Both the position numbers and the translations under genes were made by a program. A stretch of 64,000 nucleotides of DNA, taken from assembly GCF_011044495.1 (NCBI RefSeq), contig NZ_CP049143.1, positions 1,054,001 through 1,118,000 on the forward strand, in the 5' to 3' direction. The notes beneath the pieces were generated by a model. The model was not told the origin of the DNA. It saw nothing but the letters and a program-made list of their open reading frames with translations, and did not search any database. This DNA comes from Roseimicrobium sp. ORNL1. GTDB taxonomy: Bacteria; Verrucomicrobiota; Verrucomicrobiia; Verrucomicrobiales; Verrucomicrobiaceae. Numbering within the stretch: position 1 is the first letter of the stretch; each line of letters opens with the position of its first letter. Positions 41,447 to 51,916 of this stretch are shown here, piece by piece.

Positions 41447-41486
41447 AAAAAAGAAAGCGAGTGCGAACAGATGTCCGCACTCGCTT
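41447..41486 (-). terminator. strong rho-independent terminator of the sigma-54 stress operon
   Basis: On the minus strand an 11-bp perfect stem (41476-41486 with 41455-41465) is followed by TTTCTTTTTT. It lies 30 bp after the last gene of the leftward operon and marks its end. Confidence 0.85.
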
Positions 41487-41516: not shown

Positions 41517-41759
41517 CTAGTTGGTCGCGTCCTTGACCGCATCTTTGGTGTCATGAGCGGCATCCTTGACGGCGTCGCCCACGTCTTCAGCGGCGTCCCT
41601 GACTCCTTCCGCGGGCCGGCGGTCGAGAGCGTCATCCACTTTTTCCTTCAGCGAATGATCGCGTTCGCAACTGGTCATGGCGAGAGGCAGCAGAACGGGA
41701 GAGGCCAGGAGGCAGAGGGAGACTCCTGCGGCCTTCAGGGTGTGGAATGCAGGTTTCAT
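41517..41759 (-). CDS. small lipoprotein-like stress protein
   Basis: 80 residues. Signal sequence with LPLAMTSC, where the Cys could be lipid-modified, then an amphipathic helix with repeated Asp-Ala-(Val/Ala)-(Lys/Glu) units (GDAVKDAAHDTKDAVKDA), similar to LEA-like or entericidin-type small proteins. Last gene of the leftward operon, 132 bp after the DUF1328 gene and 30 bp before its terminator. Role inferred only from operon. Confidence 0.72.
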   Translation of the reverse strand: MKPAFHTLKAAGVSLCLLASPVLLPLAMTSCERDHSLKEKVDDALDRRPAEGVRDAAEDVGDAVKDAAHDTKDAVKDATN

Positions 41760-41891: not shown

Positions 41892-42068
41892 CTAGACAAC
41901 GGGTCTGCCGCGACCACCGCGACCCGTGAGGATCGAGATGAGGAAGAGCACCAAGAAGACTACGAAGAGTATCTGGGCAATCCACGCAGCAGTGCCCGCG
42001 ATGCCGCCGAATCCGAGGACGCCCGCAATGAGGGCGACCACAAGAAAGATGATAGCGTAGTGGAGCAT
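41892..42068 (-). CDS. DUF1328 (YtjA-like) membrane protein
   Basis: 58 residues, the full family size. Two membrane helices with the typical [20 protein letters not shown] and the small-residue [16 protein letters not shown], ending in Arg/Gly. In other bacteria such proteins are induced by osmotic or general stress. Start Met 42068 gives the conserved length; the earlier ATG adds a polar stretch. Confidence 0.88.
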
Positions 42069-42176: not shown

Positions 42177-42362
42177 TTACAGCTTCGCGATGAAGCTGCG
42201 GATGTTCTCCTTGGTCTCACCGGTGCGCTTCTGGATGCGGCCGATTACCTCTTCTTCTTTTCCTTCCTCGAAGAGAAGATCGTCATCCGTGAGCTGGGCG
42301 TACTTCTGTTTGATCTTGCCCTTCAGGGTGTTCCAATTGCCTTTGAAAGAGAGTTCAGTCAT
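42177..42362 (-). CDS. CsbD-family stress protein
   Basis: 61 residues, the family length. It has the CsbD pattern of N-terminal FKGNWNTLKGKIKQKYAQLTDDDL and a Lys/Glu-rich C-terminal helix. CsbD is a general-stress protein of the SigB regulon in Bacillus; its molecular role is unknown. It is cotranscribed with a YciE-like and a DUF1328 gene, a common grouping in stress loci. Confidence 0.92.
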   Translation of the reverse strand: MTELSFKGNWNTLKGKIKQKYAQLTDDDLLFEEGKEEEVIGRIQKRTGETKENIRSFIAKL

Positions 42363-42437: not shown

Positions 42438-42953
42438 TCAGTGTGAGGAGCTTGCCTGAACAGCTTCCTGATTGATGCCCGAGCTGAACCATCCGCCGGT
42501 GGCGATGTACGAGAGCATCTTGTCGTGTTCTCCAGCGCGAGAGGCCAGCTTGCCAAGCAGGGACGCCACGTCACCCTTGCCCAAGCAACGGGCGAATGCC
42601 TTCGCCGTGCCGAAGCCGGCGATCTCGTAGTGGGCGATGCGCTGGGCATTCGCGATGAGGCAGGCATCAATGGTGGCCGTCTCACCCTGGCCGCCCGTGG
42701 TCTGGGTGGCTTCCCGAATCAAACCGCGCATGGCTTCGCAGGTGACTCCTGTGGGCTGAATCGCCATGAGCTGGCAGGCCTCCTGGAGTTCGCTGATGTT
42801 GGAGAGCGTGTTCTCGGAAATGTCTGAGAGGCTTTGACGCAGATCGGAGCTCGTTGCCCTGTCGATCATGTCTGGCAACATGGCGCTGAACTGGATTTCG
42901 GCGTCAAAGAGATCTCTCAGTTGTTCGCTGAGGAGTTCGTTCAGGGAGTGCAT
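42438..42953 (-). CDS. YciE/YciF-type ferritin-like protein (DUF892)
   Basis: 171 residues. Four-helix ferritin-like fold: N-terminal LNELLSEQLRDLFDAEIQF, later IANAQRIAHYEIAGFGTAKAFA with metal-ligand-type Glu and His, and a long last helix. YciE/YciF proteins are stress-induced and bind metals in a dimer, with no established reaction. First gene of the leftward operon; its start is about 22 nt after the predicted sigma-54 transcription start. Confidence 0.9.
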   Translation of the reverse strand: MHSLNELLSEQLRDLFDAEIQFSAMLPDMIDRATSSDLRQSLSDISENTLSNISELQEACQLMAIQPTGVTCEAMRGLIREATQTTGGQGETATIDACLIANAQRIAHYEIAGFGTAKAFARCLGKGDVASLLGKLASRAGEHDKMLSYIATGGWFSSGINQEAVQASSSH

Positions 42954-42986
42954 GAGTGTCTGGGATTGGATTCCCCTCCTGATAGG

Positions 42987-43001
42987 GCAATACTCGTGCC
43001 A
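42987..43001 (-). promoter_or_regulatory. sigma-54 (-24/-12) promoter of the leftward stress operon
   Basis: Minus strand reads TTGGCACGAGTATTGC (from 43002 to 42987), a full match to the YTGGCACG-N4-TTGC consensus. GG and GC are 12 bp apart as required. The start would be near 42975, giving a leader of about 22 nt before the YciE-like gene. Confidence 0.8.
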
Positions 43002-43165
43002 ATCGCGTTCGTGCGCGTCGTATATGGCTGGAAATGAGGTGAGTATACAAAATTACAAGTTCTTGCTGTTGGAGAAAATTATCCAGATCCGTCGCAAAAT
43101 GCATGCGATGCGCAGTCTCGGCTGAGCATTCTGCAATGTTGGTCCGTCCAAGCACGAAACGACCG

Positions 43166-43224: not shown

Positions 43225-45357
43225 ATGCGACTCCGGCAGCAAACTCCCAAGTCGATCCTCGTGCTCTTTGCAGGGGCAATGATCCTCAGTGCGTTTGTGT
43301 TGTCCGTGATTGTATGGCTGAGGTTGAATGACAGTGTGGGAAGGCGCATGGAGGTGCGCACGGTGGCAATTGAGTGGGAGAAGCTGGTCTCCATGCTGAA
43401 GGACGCCGAGACGGGGCAGCGCGGCTATCTCATCACGGGAGATGAGACGTACCTGCAGCCCTTCCAATCCGCGGCCGCTGCATTGCCGGCGCAGTACCAG
43501 AAACTGACGGAGCTCGAGAACACGCAGGATGATGAGTACGGCGAGACCGAACTGCTGGCCTTTCAGCGGCTGACGGATCGTCGCATGGATGAATTGAGGG
43601 AGGCGATTACCGTCAGGCGACGGGAGGGTGCCGAAGCTGCGGCAACCTTGGTAAAACAGGGCAAGGGAATGGAGATCATGAATGATATCCGGCTCAAGGC
43701 CGGCGAGCGCGTCGCCGAGCTGGATGCCAGGATGGACCTGTACAATCGCGTCATGGAGGGAGATCTCAGGTGGGGATTCTACAGCGTCGCTGGCACTTCA
43801 CTGGCGAGCTTCCTCGCCGGACTGCTGGCATGGCGCCTGTTGCGGGAATCCGAGCAGCAGGCGCGGCGGGAGGAACGTCTCGCCATGGAGAAGCGCCGTG
43901 CGGAGCAGGCGGATCGCGAGAAGAGCATCTTCCTCGCGACGATGAGCCATGAGATCCGCACCCCCATGAATGCCATCCTGGGATTTGGGGAGCTGCTGGC
44001 AGGTGAGGCAGGGACGGACAAGGAGCGGCGCTATGCGCAATCCATTGTGCGCAGCGGGCACTCACTGCTGCAGATCATCAATGACATCCTGGACCTGTCC
44101 AAAATCGAAGCGGGCATGATGGAAATCAACCCTTCGGCCACAGACGTGCGGGAGCTGGCGGCCTTTGTGCAGCAGCTCTTCAATACCCAGGCGCATGCCA
44201 AGGGCGTGGAGATGCGTGTGGAGGTGAGCGAAGATGTGCCGCACTCGCTGCTACTGGACAGCACACGGCTGCGCCAGGTTCTCATCAATCTGGCGGGCAA
44301 TGCCTTCAAATTTACCGAGCAGGGCAGCGTGACGGTGCGCTTCAGCGGGCACCGCGAGGAGGACGTGCGGCCCATGTACCGACTTGTGGTCGAGGTGATC
44401 GACACCGGGGTGGGAATCCCGCCGGAGAGATTGACGGAGATCTTCAAGCCCTTCGTCCAGGCGAAGGTGAAGCGGGATGCCGAGAACCACGGCACCGGGC
44501 TGGGCCTCGCCATCGTGAGGCGCCTGGCGGATTTGATGCGAGGCACCATTTCTGTGCAGAGTGAGATGGGGAAAGGCAGCATCTTCCGCCTGGATCTTCC
44601 TAGAGTGGAGGTTTCTGCGCGATTGCCACAGGCTGCGGTGCCGGAGGAGCCGGCGGTAGACTTCAACGATCTCATACCCGCGGAGATCCTCGTGGTGGAT
44701 GACAACCCGGTGAATCGTGAACTGGTGCGCGGTTTCTTCGAGAACACCCATCACCAACTGCGCGAGGCCTCGGATGGACGCGAGGCGCTCCAGGCACTGC
44801 GGGAGCGCCGGCCGCATATCGTGCTCATGGACATCCGCATGCCGGTGATGGACGGACGCGAGGCCCTGCGGGCGCTCCGCGAGAGCAAGGACCTGGACCC
44901 GCTGCCTGTCATCGCGGTCACCGCATCCAGTCTGGTGGGGGAAGAGGCCAGCCTGCGACAGTCCTTTGACGGATTTGTACGCAAGCCCTTTTCCCGTGCC
45001 CAGTTGTTCCGGGAGCTTGCGCAGTTTCTCCCCCGCCGGAAGAGGGAGTCCGAAAGCGAGACGGAGATGCGTGAAGTGCAGCCAACCCCGGCCTGGAAGC
45101 AGCTGATCGAAAAATTGCACGATATGGAGGCGAGCACATGGCCTGCGGTGCGCGATGGAATGGTGATTTCCGAGGTCAGCGCATTCGCCGGGCGGCTGCG
45201 GGACCTGGCCTTGAAATATGCATGCCCACCTCTCGAACTTTATGCTTCCGATCTCATCTCTCAATGCCAGAGCTTTTCATCAGGAGGACTGGATAAGTTG
45301 ATGGAATCTTTTCCCCGAGTGATTGCAAAGATTGAGGAACGACTCGCCGCCACATGA
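43225..45357 (+). CDS. CHASE3 hybrid sensor histidine kinase/response regulator
   Basis: 710 residues. Two membrane helices (about 12-32 and 185-205) enclose a CHASE3 sensor domain with LKDAETGQRGYLITG. Then HisKA with MSHEIRTPMNA (His242), an HATPase (GTGLGLAI), a receiver domain with phosphoacceptor Asp536 (VLMDIRMPVMDG) and a helical C terminus that may be an Hpt-like module without a clear phosphoryl-accepting His motif. It is divergent from the stress operon and overlaps the next kinase gene by 4 bp. Confidence 0.93.
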   Translation: MRLRQQTPKSILVLFAGAMILSAFVLSVIVWLRLNDSVGRRMEVRTVAIEWEKLVSMLKDAETGQRGYLITGDETYLQPFQSAAAALPAQYQKLTELENTQDDEYGETELLAFQRLTDRRMDELREAITVRRREGAEAAATLVKQGKGMEIMNDIRLKAGERVAELDARMDLYNRVMEGDLRWGFYSVAGTSLASFLAGLLAWRLLRESEQQARREERLAMEKRRAEQADREKSIFLATMSHEIRTPMNAILGFGELLAGEAGTDKERRYAQSIVRSGHSLLQIINDILDLSKIEAGMMEINPSATDVRELAAFVQQLFNTQAHAKGVEMRVEVSEDVPHSLLLDSTRLRQVLINLAGNAFKFTEQGSVTVRFSGHREEDVRPMYRLVVEVIDTGVGIPPERLTEIFKPFVQAKVKRDAENHGTGLGLAIVRRLADLMRGTISVQSEMGKGSIFRLDLPRVEVSARLPQAAVPEEPAVDFNDLIPAEILVVDDNPVNRELVRGFFENTHHQLREASDGREALQALRERRPHIVLMDIRMPVMDGREALRALRESKDLDPLPVIAVTASSLVGEEASLRQSFDGFVRKPFSRAQLFRELAQFLPRRKRESESETEMREVQPTPAWKQLIEKLHDMEASTWPAVRDGMVISEVSAFAGRLRDLALKYACPPLELYASDLISQCQSFSSGGLDKLMESFPRVIAKIEERLAAT

Positions 45358-46517
45358 CCCAGCTCCCCGCGCAGACCATATTGATTGTAGATGACCAGGA
45401 AGAGAACCTCCGCCTTGTGGGGACGGTGCTTTCGATGATGAACTATGACATCATCCTGGCCAGTAGTGCGGAGCAGGCCTACAAGCGCCTGGCCTCGCGC
45501 CTGCCGGATCTCATCCTGCTGGATGTGCTGATGCCGGATGTCGATGGCCTTTCGACCTGCCGGCAGATCAAGGCCGAACCCAAGTGGGCGGATATCCCGG
45601 TGATCTTCCTCTCTGCGGCAGATGACAAAAATCTCATCGTGCAGGCCTTGGAAGCGGGTGGCGTGGATTACGTGACGAAGCCCTTCAACATGGCAGAGCT
45701 GGTTTCCCGCGTACGGACCCAGCTTTCCCTGAAACAGGCGAGGGATCAGCTGCGCATCCTCGCCGAGGACAAGGACGAAATCCTCGGCATCCTCGCGCAT
45801 GACCTGAAGAACACGCTGGCAGGCATGAAACTGAGCTCGGCATTGCTGCAGGGCCGGTCCGCCGATCTGCCTCCACGATGCATGGCGCTGGTGGACAATA
45901 TTGCGAACTCCACGGAACGCATGCTGTCCTTCGTGAAGGAATTCCTCGCCAACCAGCACGCGGAGCGACTGCAGATGAAAAAGCAGACGCTGAACCTCGG
46001 AGACTTCGTCACCCTGCTCACGGCGAATCACCAGGCGGCGGCCCAGGCCAAGAGAATCACCCTTGTCTCTCAAATACCCGGTTCTGCCGTGCAAGTGGAA
46101 GGGGACCGTGAGGCCATGACGCAGGTGCTGGAGAATCTTGTTTCCAACGCCCTGAAGTTCACGCCGCCTGGTGGCAAAGTGGAGGTGACCGTGGAACCAC
46201 CCATCGCCGGGATGGCGAAGTGCATTGTGAAGGATAACGGCCCCGGTTTCACCGAGCAGGATCGCGGGAAGATGTTCCGCCGCTATGGACGCCTGAGCGC
46301 CCGGCCCACGGGTGACGAACCCTCTACGGGACTGGGGCTTTCCATCGTGAAACGACTGCTCGACGCCATGGGAGGCAGCATCGTCCTTGCCGAGAATGCC
46401 AGTTCGGGTGCAGAATTCATTGTATCTCTTCCTATTGCCACTACGACAGAACCTGCCGAAGAGCCCGCCACCACCCAATCAGCGGCCGACGCCCCCACGG
46501 AGCGCTCAAGTTCCTAG
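45354..46517 (+). CDS. receiver-histidine kinase fusion
   Basis: 387 residues: N-terminal receiver with Asp57 (LLDVLMPDVDG), then a HisKA domain with LAHDLKNTL (His149) and an HATPase domain (LVSNALKFTPPGG, STGLGLSIVKRL). No membrane helix. It overlaps the upstream hybrid kinase by 4 bp and lies 21 bp before the NtrC-type gene, so all three are one signalling operon. Likely relays phosphate between the membrane kinase and the activator; the direction of transfer is inferred. Confidence 0.92.
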   Translation: MTQLPAQTILIVDDQEENLRLVGTVLSMMNYDIILASSAEQAYKRLASRLPDLILLDVLMPDVDGLSTCRQIKAEPKWADIPVIFLSAADDKNLIVQALEAGGVDYVTKPFNMAELVSRVRTQLSLKQARDQLRILAEDKDEILGILAHDLKNTLAGMKLSSALLQGRSADLPPRCMALVDNIANSTERMLSFVKEFLANQHAERLQMKKQTLNLGDFVTLLTANHQAAAQAKRITLVSQIPGSAVQVEGDREAMTQVLENLVSNALKFTPPGGKVEVTVEPPIAGMAKCIVKDNGPGFTEQDRGKMFRRYGRLSARPTGDEPSTGLGLSIVKRLLDAMGGSIVLAENASSGAEFIVSLPIATTTEPAEEPATTQSAADAPTERSSS

Positions 46518-46538
46518 TTTCGCTTTCGCTCACTCCGA

Positions 46539-47903
<1,365 letters not shown>

Positions 47904-48338: not shown

Positions 48339-48462
48339 TGTGCAACCTGCATAGGCATTTCTCCCTGCCACATGCACATTGCATGAGAAAAGGTTCGGTG
48401 GCTGAAGTGTGTCGTCGCGATAAGTGGTTGATGTTGAGCATTATTCCTTAATCACTTTTCGA

Positions 48463-48478
48463 TGGCACGCGCCATGCA
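48463..48478 (+). promoter_or_regulatory. sigma-54 (-24/-12) promoter of the rightward stress operon
   Basis: TGGCACGCGCCATGCA: TGGCACG is perfect, the -12 part is ATGC rather than TTGC, and GG to GC spacing is 12 bp. The start would be near 48489, leaving a leader of about 267 nt before the first confident gene at 48756. Confidence 0.7.
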
Positions 48479-48489
48479 CTTAGGAGGGC

Positions 48490-48684
48490 ATGGCTACCCT
48501 ACTCTTTTTCCCCGCTCAAGATTGCTCTGAAGTGCCACGGCATCGCAGCCGCAGCCGGCACAGCAGTCATCTTGCCGCCGCCTTCGCTGCTCTCAGCTCG
48601 GCGCATGAAGATAATGTGGACCTCCGCCTTCTGGAGCATCTGGTCATGGAAGAAGACGAAGGTGATGAACCTCGCGCCGCCTGA
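48490..48684 (+). CDS. doubtful small ORF in the sigma-54 leader
   Basis: 64 residues with an AGGAGG at 48482-48487 only 2 bases before the ATG. The predicted transcription start (about 48489) would leave that site outside the RNA, so if translated it would be leaderless. Composition (His/Ser/Arg rich) gives no domain. Listed because of its place, but more likely part of an untranslated leader. Confidence 0.2.
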   Translation: MATLLFFPAQDCSEVPRHRSRSRHSSHLAAAFAALSSAHEDNVDLRLLEHLVMEEDEGDEPRAA

Positions 48685-48755
48685 GCGCGCGATTCCCTTT
48701 TCGAGTAATACCGACTGAACCCCCAAGAAAACAAACATCCATACCCCTCCCTACC

Positions 48756-49082
48756 ATGAGCACTTCCGGACCTTCCGCTGAAACCCTCAAGCGCGATGCG
48801 CGCTCCCTCGCTGACGACACCCTCAAGATGGCGCAGAGCCGTTTGGTTGAGCCCACCATGGATGCCGCCCAGCGCGCGAGTGAGCAGGCCCGCAAGGCCT
48901 TCCAGCAATCGCGTGAACGCATGAACGAGCAACTCGCGGTCGCAGAGAAATATGCCTCCCGCGGTTACGACCAGACCACCACGTGGATTTCCGCGAATCC
49001 TCTGGCTGCTGTCGGCATTGCCATGGGTGCCGGCCTGCTGCTGTCTTCCATCTTCCGCGTGTCCTCGTCCTCGCGTCGCTAG
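48756..49082 (+). CDS. YqjD/ElaB-like (DUF883) membrane protein
   Basis: 108 residues. A long charged amphipathic helix (about 5-75) precedes a Gly/Ala-rich C-terminal membrane helix (ISANPLAAVGIAMGAGLLLSSIF), the hallmark of YqjD/ElaB proteins. In E. coli these bind ribosomes at the inner membrane in stationary phase. The following genes resemble YqjE and YqjK, so the E. coli yqjDEK order seems conserved. Confidence 0.85.
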   Translation: MSTSGPSAETLKRDARSLADDTLKMAQSRLVEPTMDAAQRASEQARKAFQQSRERMNEQLAVAEKYASRGYDQTTTWISANPLAAVGIAMGAGLLLSSIFRVSSSSRR

Positions 49083-49164
49083 TCGCGAGTGACACGATAT
49101 TAGCCGCAACAGTGTTCGTTCGCGCCCGCATGGACGCGATGAAACCTCCCACCTCCCTGCGAAC

Positions 49165-49602
49165 ATGCATGCCACCTCGTCTCCCTCGTGGTCATCCCGT
49201 CTTGATCGGGGACACAGCCTTTCGGACTCGGTCCGCACGTTGTTGTCCTCACTAATGACCTATCTGGAGACGAGGTGGCAGTTGTTCAAGGTGGAGTCTG
49301 AGCAGGCCATGCGGCTGGGCATCCAGGTGGCAATCGCGGCGCTGTTCGGCCTCGCGTGCGCCTTTGTGATGTACGTGTGCGCCATGGTCGGCGTCACGCT
49401 GTGGATTGCCCACCAGTGGTGGGACGGAGCGGTGATGCCTGCGGCCTTCATCATGGCGGGAGTGCATCTCCTGCTGTTGTCAGGTTGTGCCGGTTTCATC
49501 GTCTGGGCCCTGCGCGGACGTGAATTGTTTCACGATACGAAGACCGAATTCAAAGAGGACAAACGATGGCTGCACATGCAACAAACGACATCCAGCGACT
49601 GA
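49165..49602 (+). CDS. YqjE-like (phage holin superfamily) membrane protein
   Basis: 145 residues. An N-terminal amphipathic segment, two adjacent membrane helices (about 50-73 and 90-113) and a polar tail. The sequence LMTYLETRWQLFKVESEQA before the first helix is typical of the YqjE group. It overlaps the next gene by 37 bp, supporting a tight operon. Confidence 0.82.
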   Translation: MHATSSPSWSSRLDRGHSLSDSVRTLLSSLMTYLETRWQLFKVESEQAMRLGIQVAIAALFGLACAFVMYVCAMVGVTLWIAHQWWDGAVMPAAFIMAGVHLLLLSGCAGFIVWALRGRELFHDTKTEFKEDKRWLHMQQTTSSD

Positions 49603-50000
49603 GGACCCAGCTGGAATCCAGCCGCTGGCAGATGCATTCCGGCATCCAGCGGATCGAGGATCAGCTCAATGTCTCCAAGCGCGTCCGCACGGAGTTCAAA
49701 GAACATCCGCTGAAGTGGGTAGTCATCAGCGCCGGAGTGGGACTGGTAGCAGCCAAGCTGATCCCGATGCTTCTCGGCGGAAGAAAGAGAGGAGTCATGG
49801 GGCGCATGCTCACTCCGCTGGTTCGCGCGGGCGCCGCGGCGGCCATGCCGATTCTCGCTCATCAGGTTTCAAACTGGATGTCGCAAAAGGGACTGAGCAT
49901 TCCCGGCCTGACGCCGATGTCCATGCCTGCTGAAGCTGCGTCCGAGCCGCCGCTGACACCATCCCAAACTGTGCCGATCCAGCACGACGCCTATCCCTGA
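49566..50000 (+). CDS. YqjK-position membrane protein
   Basis: 144 residues. A charged coiled-coil N terminus (about 5-50) and two weak membrane segments (about 50-68 and 85-103) with KEHPLKWVVISAGVGLVAAKL. It resembles the third protein of yqjDEK in place and outline; sequence identity to YqjK cannot be judged here. Its stop overlaps the start of the next gene (TGATGA). Confidence 0.7.
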   Translation: MAAHATNDIQRLRTQLESSRWQMHSGIQRIEDQLNVSKRVRTEFKEHPLKWVVISAGVGLVAAKLIPMLLGGRKRGVMGRMLTPLVRAGAAAAMPILAHQVSNWMSQKGLSIPGLTPMSMPAEAASEPPLTPSQTVPIQHDAYP

Positions 50001-51916
50001 TGAATCCCTTCTCTTCACAAGACCGCACGTTGGTGCTTGCAGCCAGATTTGTGATTGCGGCCCTCACGTGCGGTCTTTTGTATTGGGGAAGAGAGGTGCT
50101 CATGCCGCTGGCGCTCGCGACGCTGATTGCGTTCATGTTGCACCCCCTCGCTGTGCGGCTGCAGCGCATTCGGGTACCACGCCTGATTTCCGTGGGTGCG
50201 GTCATGCTCTTCTCTACAGGGCTGATTGTTGCAGCCATCTGGTTCATCACCGTGCAGGTGGCCAGCTTTACGAATGAACTGCCCCTGTATCAGAAGAACA
50301 TCAGCGAGAAGATCGGCCAGGTGCAGGGCTCCATGCGCGGAGGCGCCCTGGAGAAGCTGCAGAAGGTCTTCCACTCCATTGAGAGTGAGGTGAAGGCCCG
50401 TGAGGCATCCGCCGCTCCGACCTTTTCACCTGCTGAGCCACTCCCCGTCGTCGTCGAAACCAAGGAAAAGTGGTTTGATTTCAACATCGCCAATGCCGCG
50501 GTGCCACTCATGGAACCTCTGGTCACCGGCGGCCTGATTTTCCTGCTGGTGGCGCTGATGCTACTGCGCTGGGAAGACCTTCGCGCGCGGCTTGTGAGCG
50601 TGATGAACCAGAACATCACCCGCACGACGCGCGCGATTGATGATGCCGGCAAGCGGATCGCGCGTTACCTCGCAGCGCAGCTGTTTGTCAATGGGAGCTT
50701 CGGCCTTGCCGTAGGGTTGGGATTGTGGGCGCTGGGTGTGCCCTATGCGGGACTGTGGGGATTGTGCGCCGCCATCTTTCGCTATGTCCCTTATCTTGGC
50801 CCCATGGTGGCTGCAGTATTGCCCATCATGGTGAGCCTGGTGACGTCCGAGGGATGGACCCAGGTGCTTAGCGTTGGGGCTCTGTTTCTCGTCTTGGAAC
50901 TCGTGAGCAACAATGTGCTGGAACCGTGGCTGTACGGATGGCGCGTGGGACTCTCCGAGATCGGTGTGATCGTGTCGGCGGTGGCATGGACATTTCTGTG
51001 GGGCACGGCGGGGCTGGTGCTGGCTGTACCGCTCACCGTGTGCCTCGTGGTGCTGGGCGAGCACGTGCCTGCCTTGTCATTCTTCCCGCAACTCTTCGGA
51101 GACAAACCGGCGCTGCCGCTGCACCTGCGCTTTTATCAGCGACTGCTGGCGCATGACAAGACAGAGGCTGCGGATTTGGCGAAGAAGTATGTGAAGGCCC
51201 ACGGCTTCGCCAAGACTGGGGACGAAGTCATTGCCCCGGCCCTGGCCCACGCACGAGTGGAAGAGATGCGAGGAGCCTTGAGTGACGAAGAGGTGCGGGA
51301 GTTCGTCACGGCCATCCCGTATGTGCTGGATCGGGCGGACGACGAACTCGACGATGAGGACGACGAGGTTGATGAAAACAACACGCGCAATGTGGAGGTC
51401 GCGGCGGGTCCCGTGGTGGTGTGGCCGCTGTGCACTCTCTCGGAAGCGTTGGTGCCTGTGTTGCAACATCACTGCCGGGACCTTCCCTGTCGTTGGGAGG
51501 TGATGTCAGAGGAGTCGCTTACTTCCGAAGTGATTGCGAAACTGGCCCGGGAAGAGGAACCACCCGAGGCGGTTTGCCTTCTGCTGCTCATCCAGGAAGA
51601 TCTCACACGTGCTCGCAACCTCTGCAAAAAACTGCGTCACACCTTTCCGGACGTGCACATCACCGTCGGCTTCTGGTCCGGCTCCAAGGTCGAGTCTGAG
51701 ATAACACAGACGATGGAGAAGACGGGGCAGGCCAAGATCACGTGGACGCCTTCCGAGACGCGGAGTGACCTCGCTCCGCATGTCCTGGATCGCGCCAAGG
51801 AAGTGGCGCCAGAAGTCGCTGCCGAAATGAGGACGGAAGAGCAAAGACCGCGAAAAGGCGAAAGCGAAGACGATACTCCTGCGCGGAAGCAGTCTCGCGC
51901 GATCGTTCACGCGTGA
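50000..51916 (+). CDS. AI-2E/PerM-family transporter with a C-terminal cytoplasmic domain
   Basis: 638 residues. About eight membrane segments in the first 360 residues, with the family signature RYVPYLGPMVAAVLPIMVSL and a mid-region rich in Lys/Glu. After it comes an acidic patch (DDELDDEDDEVDENN, near residue 450) and a C-terminal alpha/beta domain (about 470-600, including CLLLLIQEDLTRARNLCKKL). PerM-type proteins move small molecules or ions; the family includes sodium/proton exchangers and autoinducer exporters. Fourth gene of the rightward operon. Confidence 0.85.
   Translation: MNPFSSQDRTLVLAARFVIAALTCGLLYWGREVLMPLALATLIAFMLHPLAVRLQRIRVPRLISVGAVMLFSTGLIVAAIWFITVQVASFTNELPLYQKNISEKIGQVQGSMRGGALEKLQKVFHSIESEVKAREASAAPTFSPAEPLPVVVETKEKWFDFNIANAAVPLMEPLVTGGLIFLLVALMLLRWEDLRARLVSVMNQNITRTTRAIDDAGKRIARYLAAQLFVNGSFGLAVGLGLWALGVPYAGLWGLCAAIFRYVPYLGPMVAAVLPIMVSLVTSEGWTQVLSVGALFLVLELVSNNVLEPWLYGWRVGLSEIGVIVSAVAWTFLWGTAGLVLAVPLTVCLVVLGEHVPALSFFPQLFGDKPALPLHLRFYQRLLAHDKTEAADLAKKYVKAHGFAKTGDEVIAPALAHARVEEMRGALSDEEVREFVTAIPYVLDRADDELDDEDDEVDENNTRNVEVAAGPVVVWPLCTLSEALVPVLQHHCRDLPCRWEVMSEESLTSEVIAKLAREEEPPEAVCLLLLIQEDLTRARNLCKKLRHTFPDVHITVGFWSGSKVESEITQTMEKTGQAKITWTPSETRSDLAPHVLDRAKEVAPEVAAEMRTEEQRPRKGESEDDTPARKQSRAIVHA

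What the first reader, a model, noticed from the sequence alone, without database searches (positions are those of the whole stretch)
42987..43001. Full-consensus sigma-54 promoter before the YciE/CsbD operon
The minus strand matches every fixed base of YTGGCACG-N4-TTGC with correct spacing, about 22 nt before the first start codon, and the operon ends at a strong terminator (41447-41486). The match and position make it one of the surest regulatory elements in the window, and it ties a CsbD-type stress operon to sigma-54, which is unusual.
Basis: partly seen in the sequence, partly recalled or inferred. Interest (0 to 1): 0.65.

Follow-up and report, generated by a model that had tools for sequence, protein, structure and literature searches.

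The report
Sigma-54 switch for small stress proteins
The predicted promoter is real: with two activator-binding sites and a neighbouring sensor-kinase/activator operon it forms a switch, conserved across Verrucomicrobiota, that most likely turns on small envelope-stress proteins through sigma-54, a job other bacteria give to different stress sigma factors.

Summary
TTGGCACGAGTATTGC (42987-43002, minus strand) is an exact sigma-54 consensus ending 33 nt before the yciE start. The operon yciE-csbD-DUF1328-lipoprotein ends at a good terminator. Of three exact matches in the 8-Mb genome, only this one sits correctly before a gene. The finding did not mention the divergent operon (43225-47903): two histidine kinases and a sigma-54 activator (REC-AAA+-Fis, GAFTGA). 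Between the operons lie paired palindromic activator sites (TTGCA-N3-TGCAA type), found by unbiased enumeration. The promoter is conserved in the genus-mate (15/16 bases; background 62%) and in four other genomes with this layout. Around orthologous activators, paired sites plus a -24/-12 box occur 55 times versus 0 in reversed sequence, with helical spacing (21-24 or 30-33 bp). The same architecture precedes csbD elsewhere almost only in genomes carrying this activator, and also precedes yqjD/E-like genes (window 48462), a second DUF1328, entericidin-like lipoproteins and, beside this activator in Prosthecobacter-type genomes, a second rpoN. Best reading: a Verrucomicrobiota kinase/sigma-54 regulon for small envelope-stress proteins. 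The architecture is strongly supported; activation, signal and stress function are inferred. No prior description was found in the library searched.

The parts
42987..43002 (-). sigma-54 (-24/-12) promoter TTGGCACGAGTATTGC; predicted transcription start near 42975
   Evidence: exact consensus; conserved in L061-L065
43092..43104 (-). proximal activator site ATGCATTTTGCGA, 89 nt above the box
   Evidence: fits the enumerated motif TGC-N5-GCA; kept in L061
43126..43136 (-). distal activator site TTGCAGAATGC, 32 bp above the proximal one
43104..43114 (-). possible third site TGCGCATCGCA between the two (weaker; not kept in L061)
   Evidence: sequence
42438..42953 (-). yciE-like gene (DUF892), first gene of the operon
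   Evidence: Pfam PF05974 E=1e-33
42177..42362 (-). csbD-like gene
   Evidence: Pfam PF05532 E=4e-17
41892..42068 (-). DUF1328 membrane protein gene
   Evidence: Pfam PF07043 E=1e-17
41517..41759 (-). small lipoprotein-like gene (lipobox-like TSC, charged repeats)
   Evidence: no Pfam family; homologues near other copies of the activator
41447..41486 (-). intrinsic terminator of the operon
   Evidence: 14-bp stem and T-run
43225..45357 (+). HK1: CHASE3-HisKA-HATPase-receiver hybrid histidine kinase
   Evidence: Pfam
45354..46517 (+). HK2: receiver-HisKA-HATPase kinase
   Evidence: Pfam; alignment A1
46539..47903 (+). sigma-54 activator: receiver-AAA+ (GAFTGA)-Fis
   Evidence: Pfam PF00158 E=6e-69, PF02954; alignment A2
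48341..48382 (+). second pair of activator sites (TGCAACCTGC, TGCACATTGC, 32 bp apart)
48462..48478 (+). second predicted sigma-54 promoter ATGGCACGCGCCATGCA after the activator gene
   Evidence: same position in L061-L065
48756..49082 (+). yqjD/elaB-like gene (DUF883 C-terminal region, weak)
   Evidence: Pfam E=1e-3, below cut-off
49165..49602 (+). yqjE-like gene (Phage_holin_3_6)
   Evidence: Pfam PF07332 E=2e-12
49566..50000 (+). 144-aa membrane-anchored protein gene of the same operon, no family
50000..51916 (+). AI-2E family transporter gene
   Evidence: Pfam PF01594 E=1e-41

Best explanation
The motif is a working sigma-54 promoter and the output of the divergent signalling operon. A stress signal at the CHASE3 sensor kinase HK1, with HK2, leads to phosphorylation of the receiver of the activator (46539-47903). 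The activator binds as oligomers to paired TTGCA-N3-TGCAA sites about 90-130 nt upstream of the -24/-12 box, loops to sigma-54 polymerase and drives promoter opening. YciE, CsbD, DUF1328 and a small lipoprotein are then made as one transcript that ends at 41447. The same activator drives the yqjD/E-like operon at 48462 and several distant small-protein genes, so this is one promoter of a sigma-54 regulon for small envelope and stress proteins conserved in Verrucomicrobiota. Shown: sequence elements, conservation, co-occurrence with the activator. Inferred: binding, order of phosphotransfer, signal, stress induction.
For: Exact consensus, well placed. One rpoN. Divergent GAFTGA activator operon. 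Conservation against a drifting background. Activator sites found without prior motif: 10 of 12 sequences, 15 copies versus 1.2 expected. 55 paired-site-plus-box combinations versus 0 in reversed DNA, with helical spacing. csbD genes carry the architecture in 10 of 22 cases with the activator and 1 of 42 without. In five genomes a second rpoN lies in the cluster, in three of them examined behind one of the best-scoring promoters of this type. Invariant recognition helix in the close activator group.
Against: No expression data. Several Verrucomicrobiota loci with the kinase operon have no recognisable box facing the divergent gene (L225, L226, L228, L229, L233, L235). Some csbD copies in activator-bearing genomes lack the sites. 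The genome has about 24 or more activator-family genes, so cross-control is possible. Stress function rests on gene content, and an RpoS-like sigma is also present.
Confidence: 0.82

Rival explanations
1. A genuine sigma-54 promoter, but controlled by a different activator of the genome; the divergent kinase/activator operon is a neighbour that regulates something else.
For: The genome encodes many activators of this family (25 matches listed).
Against: The paired sites and box follow this activator across genomes and gene orders; the module stays linked to YciE/CsbD/DUF1328 in distant Verrucomicrobiota.
Confidence: 0.1
2. The operon is mainly expressed from an unrecognised sigma-70-family promoter, for instance around TATACT near 43045 or from the RpoS-like group-2 sigma; the sigma-54 site is secondary.
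For: A TATACT hexamer lies about 45 nt above the box; an RpoS-like sigma exists; related genes are sigmaS-dependent in enteric bacteria.
Against: No sigma-70 site passes the scan; the TATACT region is not conserved as a promoter in L061 while the sigma-54 box is.
Confidence: 0.06
3. Chance match to the consensus with no function.
For: Most other exact matches in the genome lie inside genes and look like chance.
Against: Position, conservation, adjacent activator and paired sites.
Confidence: 0.02

Closest known systems
NtrC-family two-component activators (REC-AAA+-Fis) with -24/-12 promoters, e.g. NtrC, ZraR, AtoC (from general knowledge)
   Same: Domain order, GAFTGA loop, paired palindromic upstream sites, adjacent kinase genes, divergent target promoter.
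   Different: Two kinases (CHASE3 hybrid and receiver-kinase), a TGC-N5-GCA site, and targets that are small envelope and stress proteins.
General stress regulons: sigmaS (enterics), EcfG (alphaproteobacteria), sigmaB (Bacillus)
   Same: Overlapping gene content: CsbD homologues, entericidins and YciE/YqjD-type genes; csbD (yjbJ) and ecnB are in the Salmonella sigmaS set (PMC5437024), csbD and ecnAB in the Sphingopyxis EcfG regulon (PMC7083833).
   Different: Here the promoter type is sigma-54 with an ATP-driven activator instead of a dedicated sigma-70-family stress factor.
Sigma-54 stress regulons of Desulfovibrio vulgaris (DVU3305 'general stress', DVU1419 and DVU3381 'envelope stress'; PMC4641369)
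   Same: Receiver-type sigma-54 activators annotated with stress targets.
   Different: CsbD is not mentioned in that paper; a different phylum; relatedness of those activators to this one was not tested.

Membership tests
Sigma-54 promoter | GG at -24 and GC at -12 with 10-nt spacing and extended consensus | tested here: met
   Exact YTGGCACG-N4-TTGC
Sigma-54 promoter | rpoN in the genome | tested here: met
   One copy, PF04552 E=1e-60
Sigma-54 promoter | Conserved position before orthologous genes | tested here: met
   L061-L065
Sigma-54 promoter | Transcription start about 12 nt downstream, dependent on RpoN | not testable with these tools
   Needs 5'-end mapping and a mutant
NtrC-type activator regulon | Activator with receiver, AAA+ with GAFTGA and Fis-type DNA-binding domain | tested here: met
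NtrC-type activator regulon | Paired palindromic activator sites upstream of the box | tested here: met
NtrC-type activator regulon | Activator binds the sites and is needed for expression | not testable with these tools
   Needs gel shift or mutant
General stress regulon | Typical gene content (CsbD, YciE, DUF1328, YqjD/E, entericidin) | tested here: met
   YqjD match is weak
General stress regulon | Controlled by a dedicated sigma-70-family stress sigma factor | tested here: not met
   Promoter is sigma-54 type and no sigma-70 site was found; an RpoS-like sigma exists in the genome without a seen link to this operon
General stress regulon | Induced by several unrelated stresses | not testable with these tools
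   Needs expression data

The most novel reading that the evidence does not exclude
Verrucomicrobiota have moved the core of a general (envelope/osmotic) stress response from a stress sigma factor to sigma-54: a two-kinase relay and one enhancer-binding activator, in some genera with a dedicated autoregulated second sigma-54, control the small-protein stress regulon.
Probability: 0.45. Interest if true: 0.8.

Novelty: new variant of a known kind. Interest (0 to 1): 0.62.

Why it matters
I found almost nothing on stress regulation by sigma-54 in Verrucomicrobiota. This gives a concrete activator, binding site, promoter and target list, testable by one deletion plus RNA-seq, in a phylum with named isolates such as Prosthecobacter, Brevifollis and Verrucomicrobium. 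If confirmed, it shows that CsbD, YciE, DUF1328, YqjD-like and entericidin-like proteins stay together as a regulon although the transcription machinery that controls them has been exchanged, which points to a shared role for these poorly understood small proteins.

Tried and rejected
A paired-site-only search (60 versus 4 in control) is inflated by a dispersed repeat (TGCAGCCTGCTGCCGCTTTC...), so paired sites alone are not a safe regulon call. The single-site-plus-box search over 68 genomes is enriched in the 15 activator-bearing genomes (36 matches versus 3 control; roughly 57 versus 17 in the other 53, counted by hand), but many hits lie in genes; it was used only to locate the conserved promoter after the activator. 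A low-threshold -24/-12 scan was useless. Sigma-70 promoter: none found. The idea that sigma-54 stands in for an absent RpoS was dropped because the genome has an RpoS-like group-2 sigma, below the curated cut-off. A yciE paralogue at G000 2825640 has paired sites but no clear box. Paper searches joining CsbD or YciE with sigma-54/RpoN, or Verrucomicrobia with sigma-54 activators, gave nothing on this link; the main text of the sigma-54 survey PMC3162934 holds neither Verrucomicrobia nor CsbD.

Full report
OBSERVATION. The 16-mer TTGGCACGAGTATTGC lies at 43002-42987 on the minus strand and matches the sigma-54 consensus exactly. Weaker matches in the window are at chance level (16 found, 16.6 expected at up to two mismatches), so only the exact one deserves attention. 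Across the 7.96-Mb genome TGGCAC-N5-TTGC occurs 29 times versus 14 for the reversed pattern. Most copies lie inside genes; of three that fit the full consensus only the reported one is intergenic with a start codon at the right distance. Another exact core, L008, lies 45 nt before a gene that looks like a branched-chain amino acid/urea transporter permease (my reading of the sequence). The motif ends 33 nt before the ATG, so the predicted transcript begins near 42975 with a 22-nt leader. The terminator is confirmed and no sigma-70 promoter is found.

SURROUNDINGS. The operon encodes DUF892/YciE, CsbD, DUF1328 and a small lipoprotein-like protein. The finding does not mention the divergent operon that starts at 43225: a CHASE3 hybrid kinase, a receiver-kinase, and a receiver-AAA+-Fis protein with the GAFTGA loop that contacts sigma-54. 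The genome has one rpoN. A sigma-54 promoter facing away from a sigma-54 activator operon is a classical arrangement (general knowledge).

CONSERVATION. Orthologues of the activator (about 59-95% identity) occur in 15 of 68 genomes of the family. In L061 (same genus) the intergenic region is 62% identical overall, but the promoter is 15/16 identical and two further blocks, ATTGCAGAATGCT and ATGCATTTYGC, are kept. In L062-L065 a box stands at the same place with the same spacing: CTGGCACGCGATATGC, GTGGCATGCCATATGC, GTGGCATGAGGAATGC, GTGGCACGAGGAATGC; L066 has a weaker one.

ACTIVATOR SITES. I listed all gapped palindromes in the 200 nt above the -24/-12 boxes near orthologous activators (12 non-redundant sequences). 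TGC-N5-GCA was the clear winner: 10 of 12 sequences, 15 copies, versus 1.2 in shuffles. The fuller form is TTGCA-N3-TGCAA. Sites come in pairs. In a scan of activator neighbourhoods and target loci, 55 combinations of paired sites plus box reached the threshold, against none in the same DNA reversed. Pair spacings cluster at 21-24 and 30-33 bp, about two and three helical turns, and the proximal site lies most often 76-78 nt above the box. In the window the pair is 43126-43136 and 43092-43104, 32 bp apart, the proximal one 89 nt above the box.

REGULON. In this genome the same architecture precedes (i) the YciE operon; (ii) a yqjD-like/yqjE-like/AI-2E-type transporter operon right after the activator gene (box at window 48462-48478), a position conserved in L061-L065; (iii) a second DUF1328 gene; (iv) an entericidin-like lipoprotein gene followed by a receiver-Fis-like protein without AAA+ domain (weaker box); (v) a 145-aa protein without family; (vi) a short ORF with a longer distance. 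Tested from the gene side, among csbD genes of the family 10 of 22 in activator-bearing genomes have the architecture within 600 nt (the window and L061 copies lie further down their operon and are not counted), versus 1 of 42 in other genomes, Fisher p=4e-5. The exception, G036, is an 87% complete draft in 1230 contigs. Caveats: related genomes are not independent, and the cut-off was set after seeing the scores; at a stricter cut-off the contrast is 5 of 22 versus 1 of 42 (p=0.016).

BEYOND THE FAMILY. HK2 relatives of about 50% identity or more were found only in Verrucomicrobiota records (Brevifollis, Prosthecobacter, Verrucomicrobium, Opitutaceae, Limisphaerales, Akkermansiaceae; L213-L238), and full-length hits in other phyla fall to about 33% and below. 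Loci not used to define the sites show CsbD, DUF1328 or YciE divergent from the kinase operon, and the sites plus box in several, e.g. L220, L221, L237, L238. Other apparent targets are a PRC-barrel protein with a YflT-like protein (L228), DUF5670 and small lipoproteins. Some loci (L225, L226, L228, L229, L233, L235) lack a recognisable box facing the divergent gene next to HK1, so control is not uniform.

A SECOND SIGMA-54. In five Prosthecobacter-type genomes (G013, G014, G017, G018, G047) a second rpoN lies beside this activator and csbD, in three of them with yciE as well; the other nine activator-bearing genomes tested have a single rpoN. In L069, L070 and L071 that rpoN has one of the best-scoring paired-site promoters. 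This independently ties the activator module to sigma-54 and suggests positive feedback there.

MECHANISM. Shown at sequence level: promoter, paired sites, activator, terminator, conservation, co-occurrence. Inferred: signal sensed by CHASE3, phosphotransfer through the two kinases, activator binding and looping, stress induction. The stress reading rests on gene content: the CsbD homologue yjbJ and ecnB belong to the sigmaS set in Salmonella (PMC5437024) and csbD and ecnAB to the EcfG regulon in Sphingopyxis (PMC7083833). It is not shown that this genome lacks another stress sigma; an RpoS-like group-2 factor is present.

NOVELTY. Sigma-54 activators for stress exist, e.g. several in Desulfovibrio vulgaris (PMC4641369). 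I found no paper linking CsbD/YciE-type genes or Verrucomicrobiota stress genes to sigma-54 in the library searched; most subscription papers are not covered. I file it as a new variant of a known kind: ordinary sigma-54/activator machinery with an unexpected regulon and, in some genera, its own sigma-54.

Noticed in passing
L067-L071 (G014, G047, G013, G018, G017), e.g. L070 3582-4985: A second rpoN (sigma-54) gene sits inside the activator/csbD cluster of five Prosthecobacter-type genomes; in L069-L071 it has its own paired-site -24/-12 promoter, suggesting a dedicated, autoregulated sigma-54.
   Followed up: partly
L122 2400-3400, minus strand (G000 about 7.0874-7.0884 Mb): A receiver-Fis-like protein that lacks the AAA+ domain follows an entericidin-like lipoprotein gene behind paired activator sites; it could act as a brake on the activator by occupying its sites.
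   Followed up: no
window 48341-51916: A second predicted promoter of the same type after the activator gene, before yqjD-like, yqjE-like and AI-2E transporter genes; its position is conserved in relatives.
   Followed up: yes
G000, e.g. L086, L087, L098, L102-L106, L109, L111: A dispersed repeat with core TGCAGCCTGCTGCCGCTTTC...TGCAGCCTGC occurs about 20 times in the genome; nature unknown.
   Followed up: no
window 43225-45357, last ~80 residues of HK1: After the receiver HK1 ends in a helical stretch that resembles a phosphotransfer domain without an obvious phospho-accepting histidine (by eye only).
   Followed up: no
L072-L078: A second subfamily of the two-kinase/activator operon (activator about 60% identical) is linked to small lipoprotein, entericidin-like and YqjD-like genes instead of YciE.
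   Followed up: partly
L168 (G036): A csbD gene with a near-perfect paired-site promoter in a draft genome where no close activator orthologue was found; probably a gap in the assembly.
   Followed up: no
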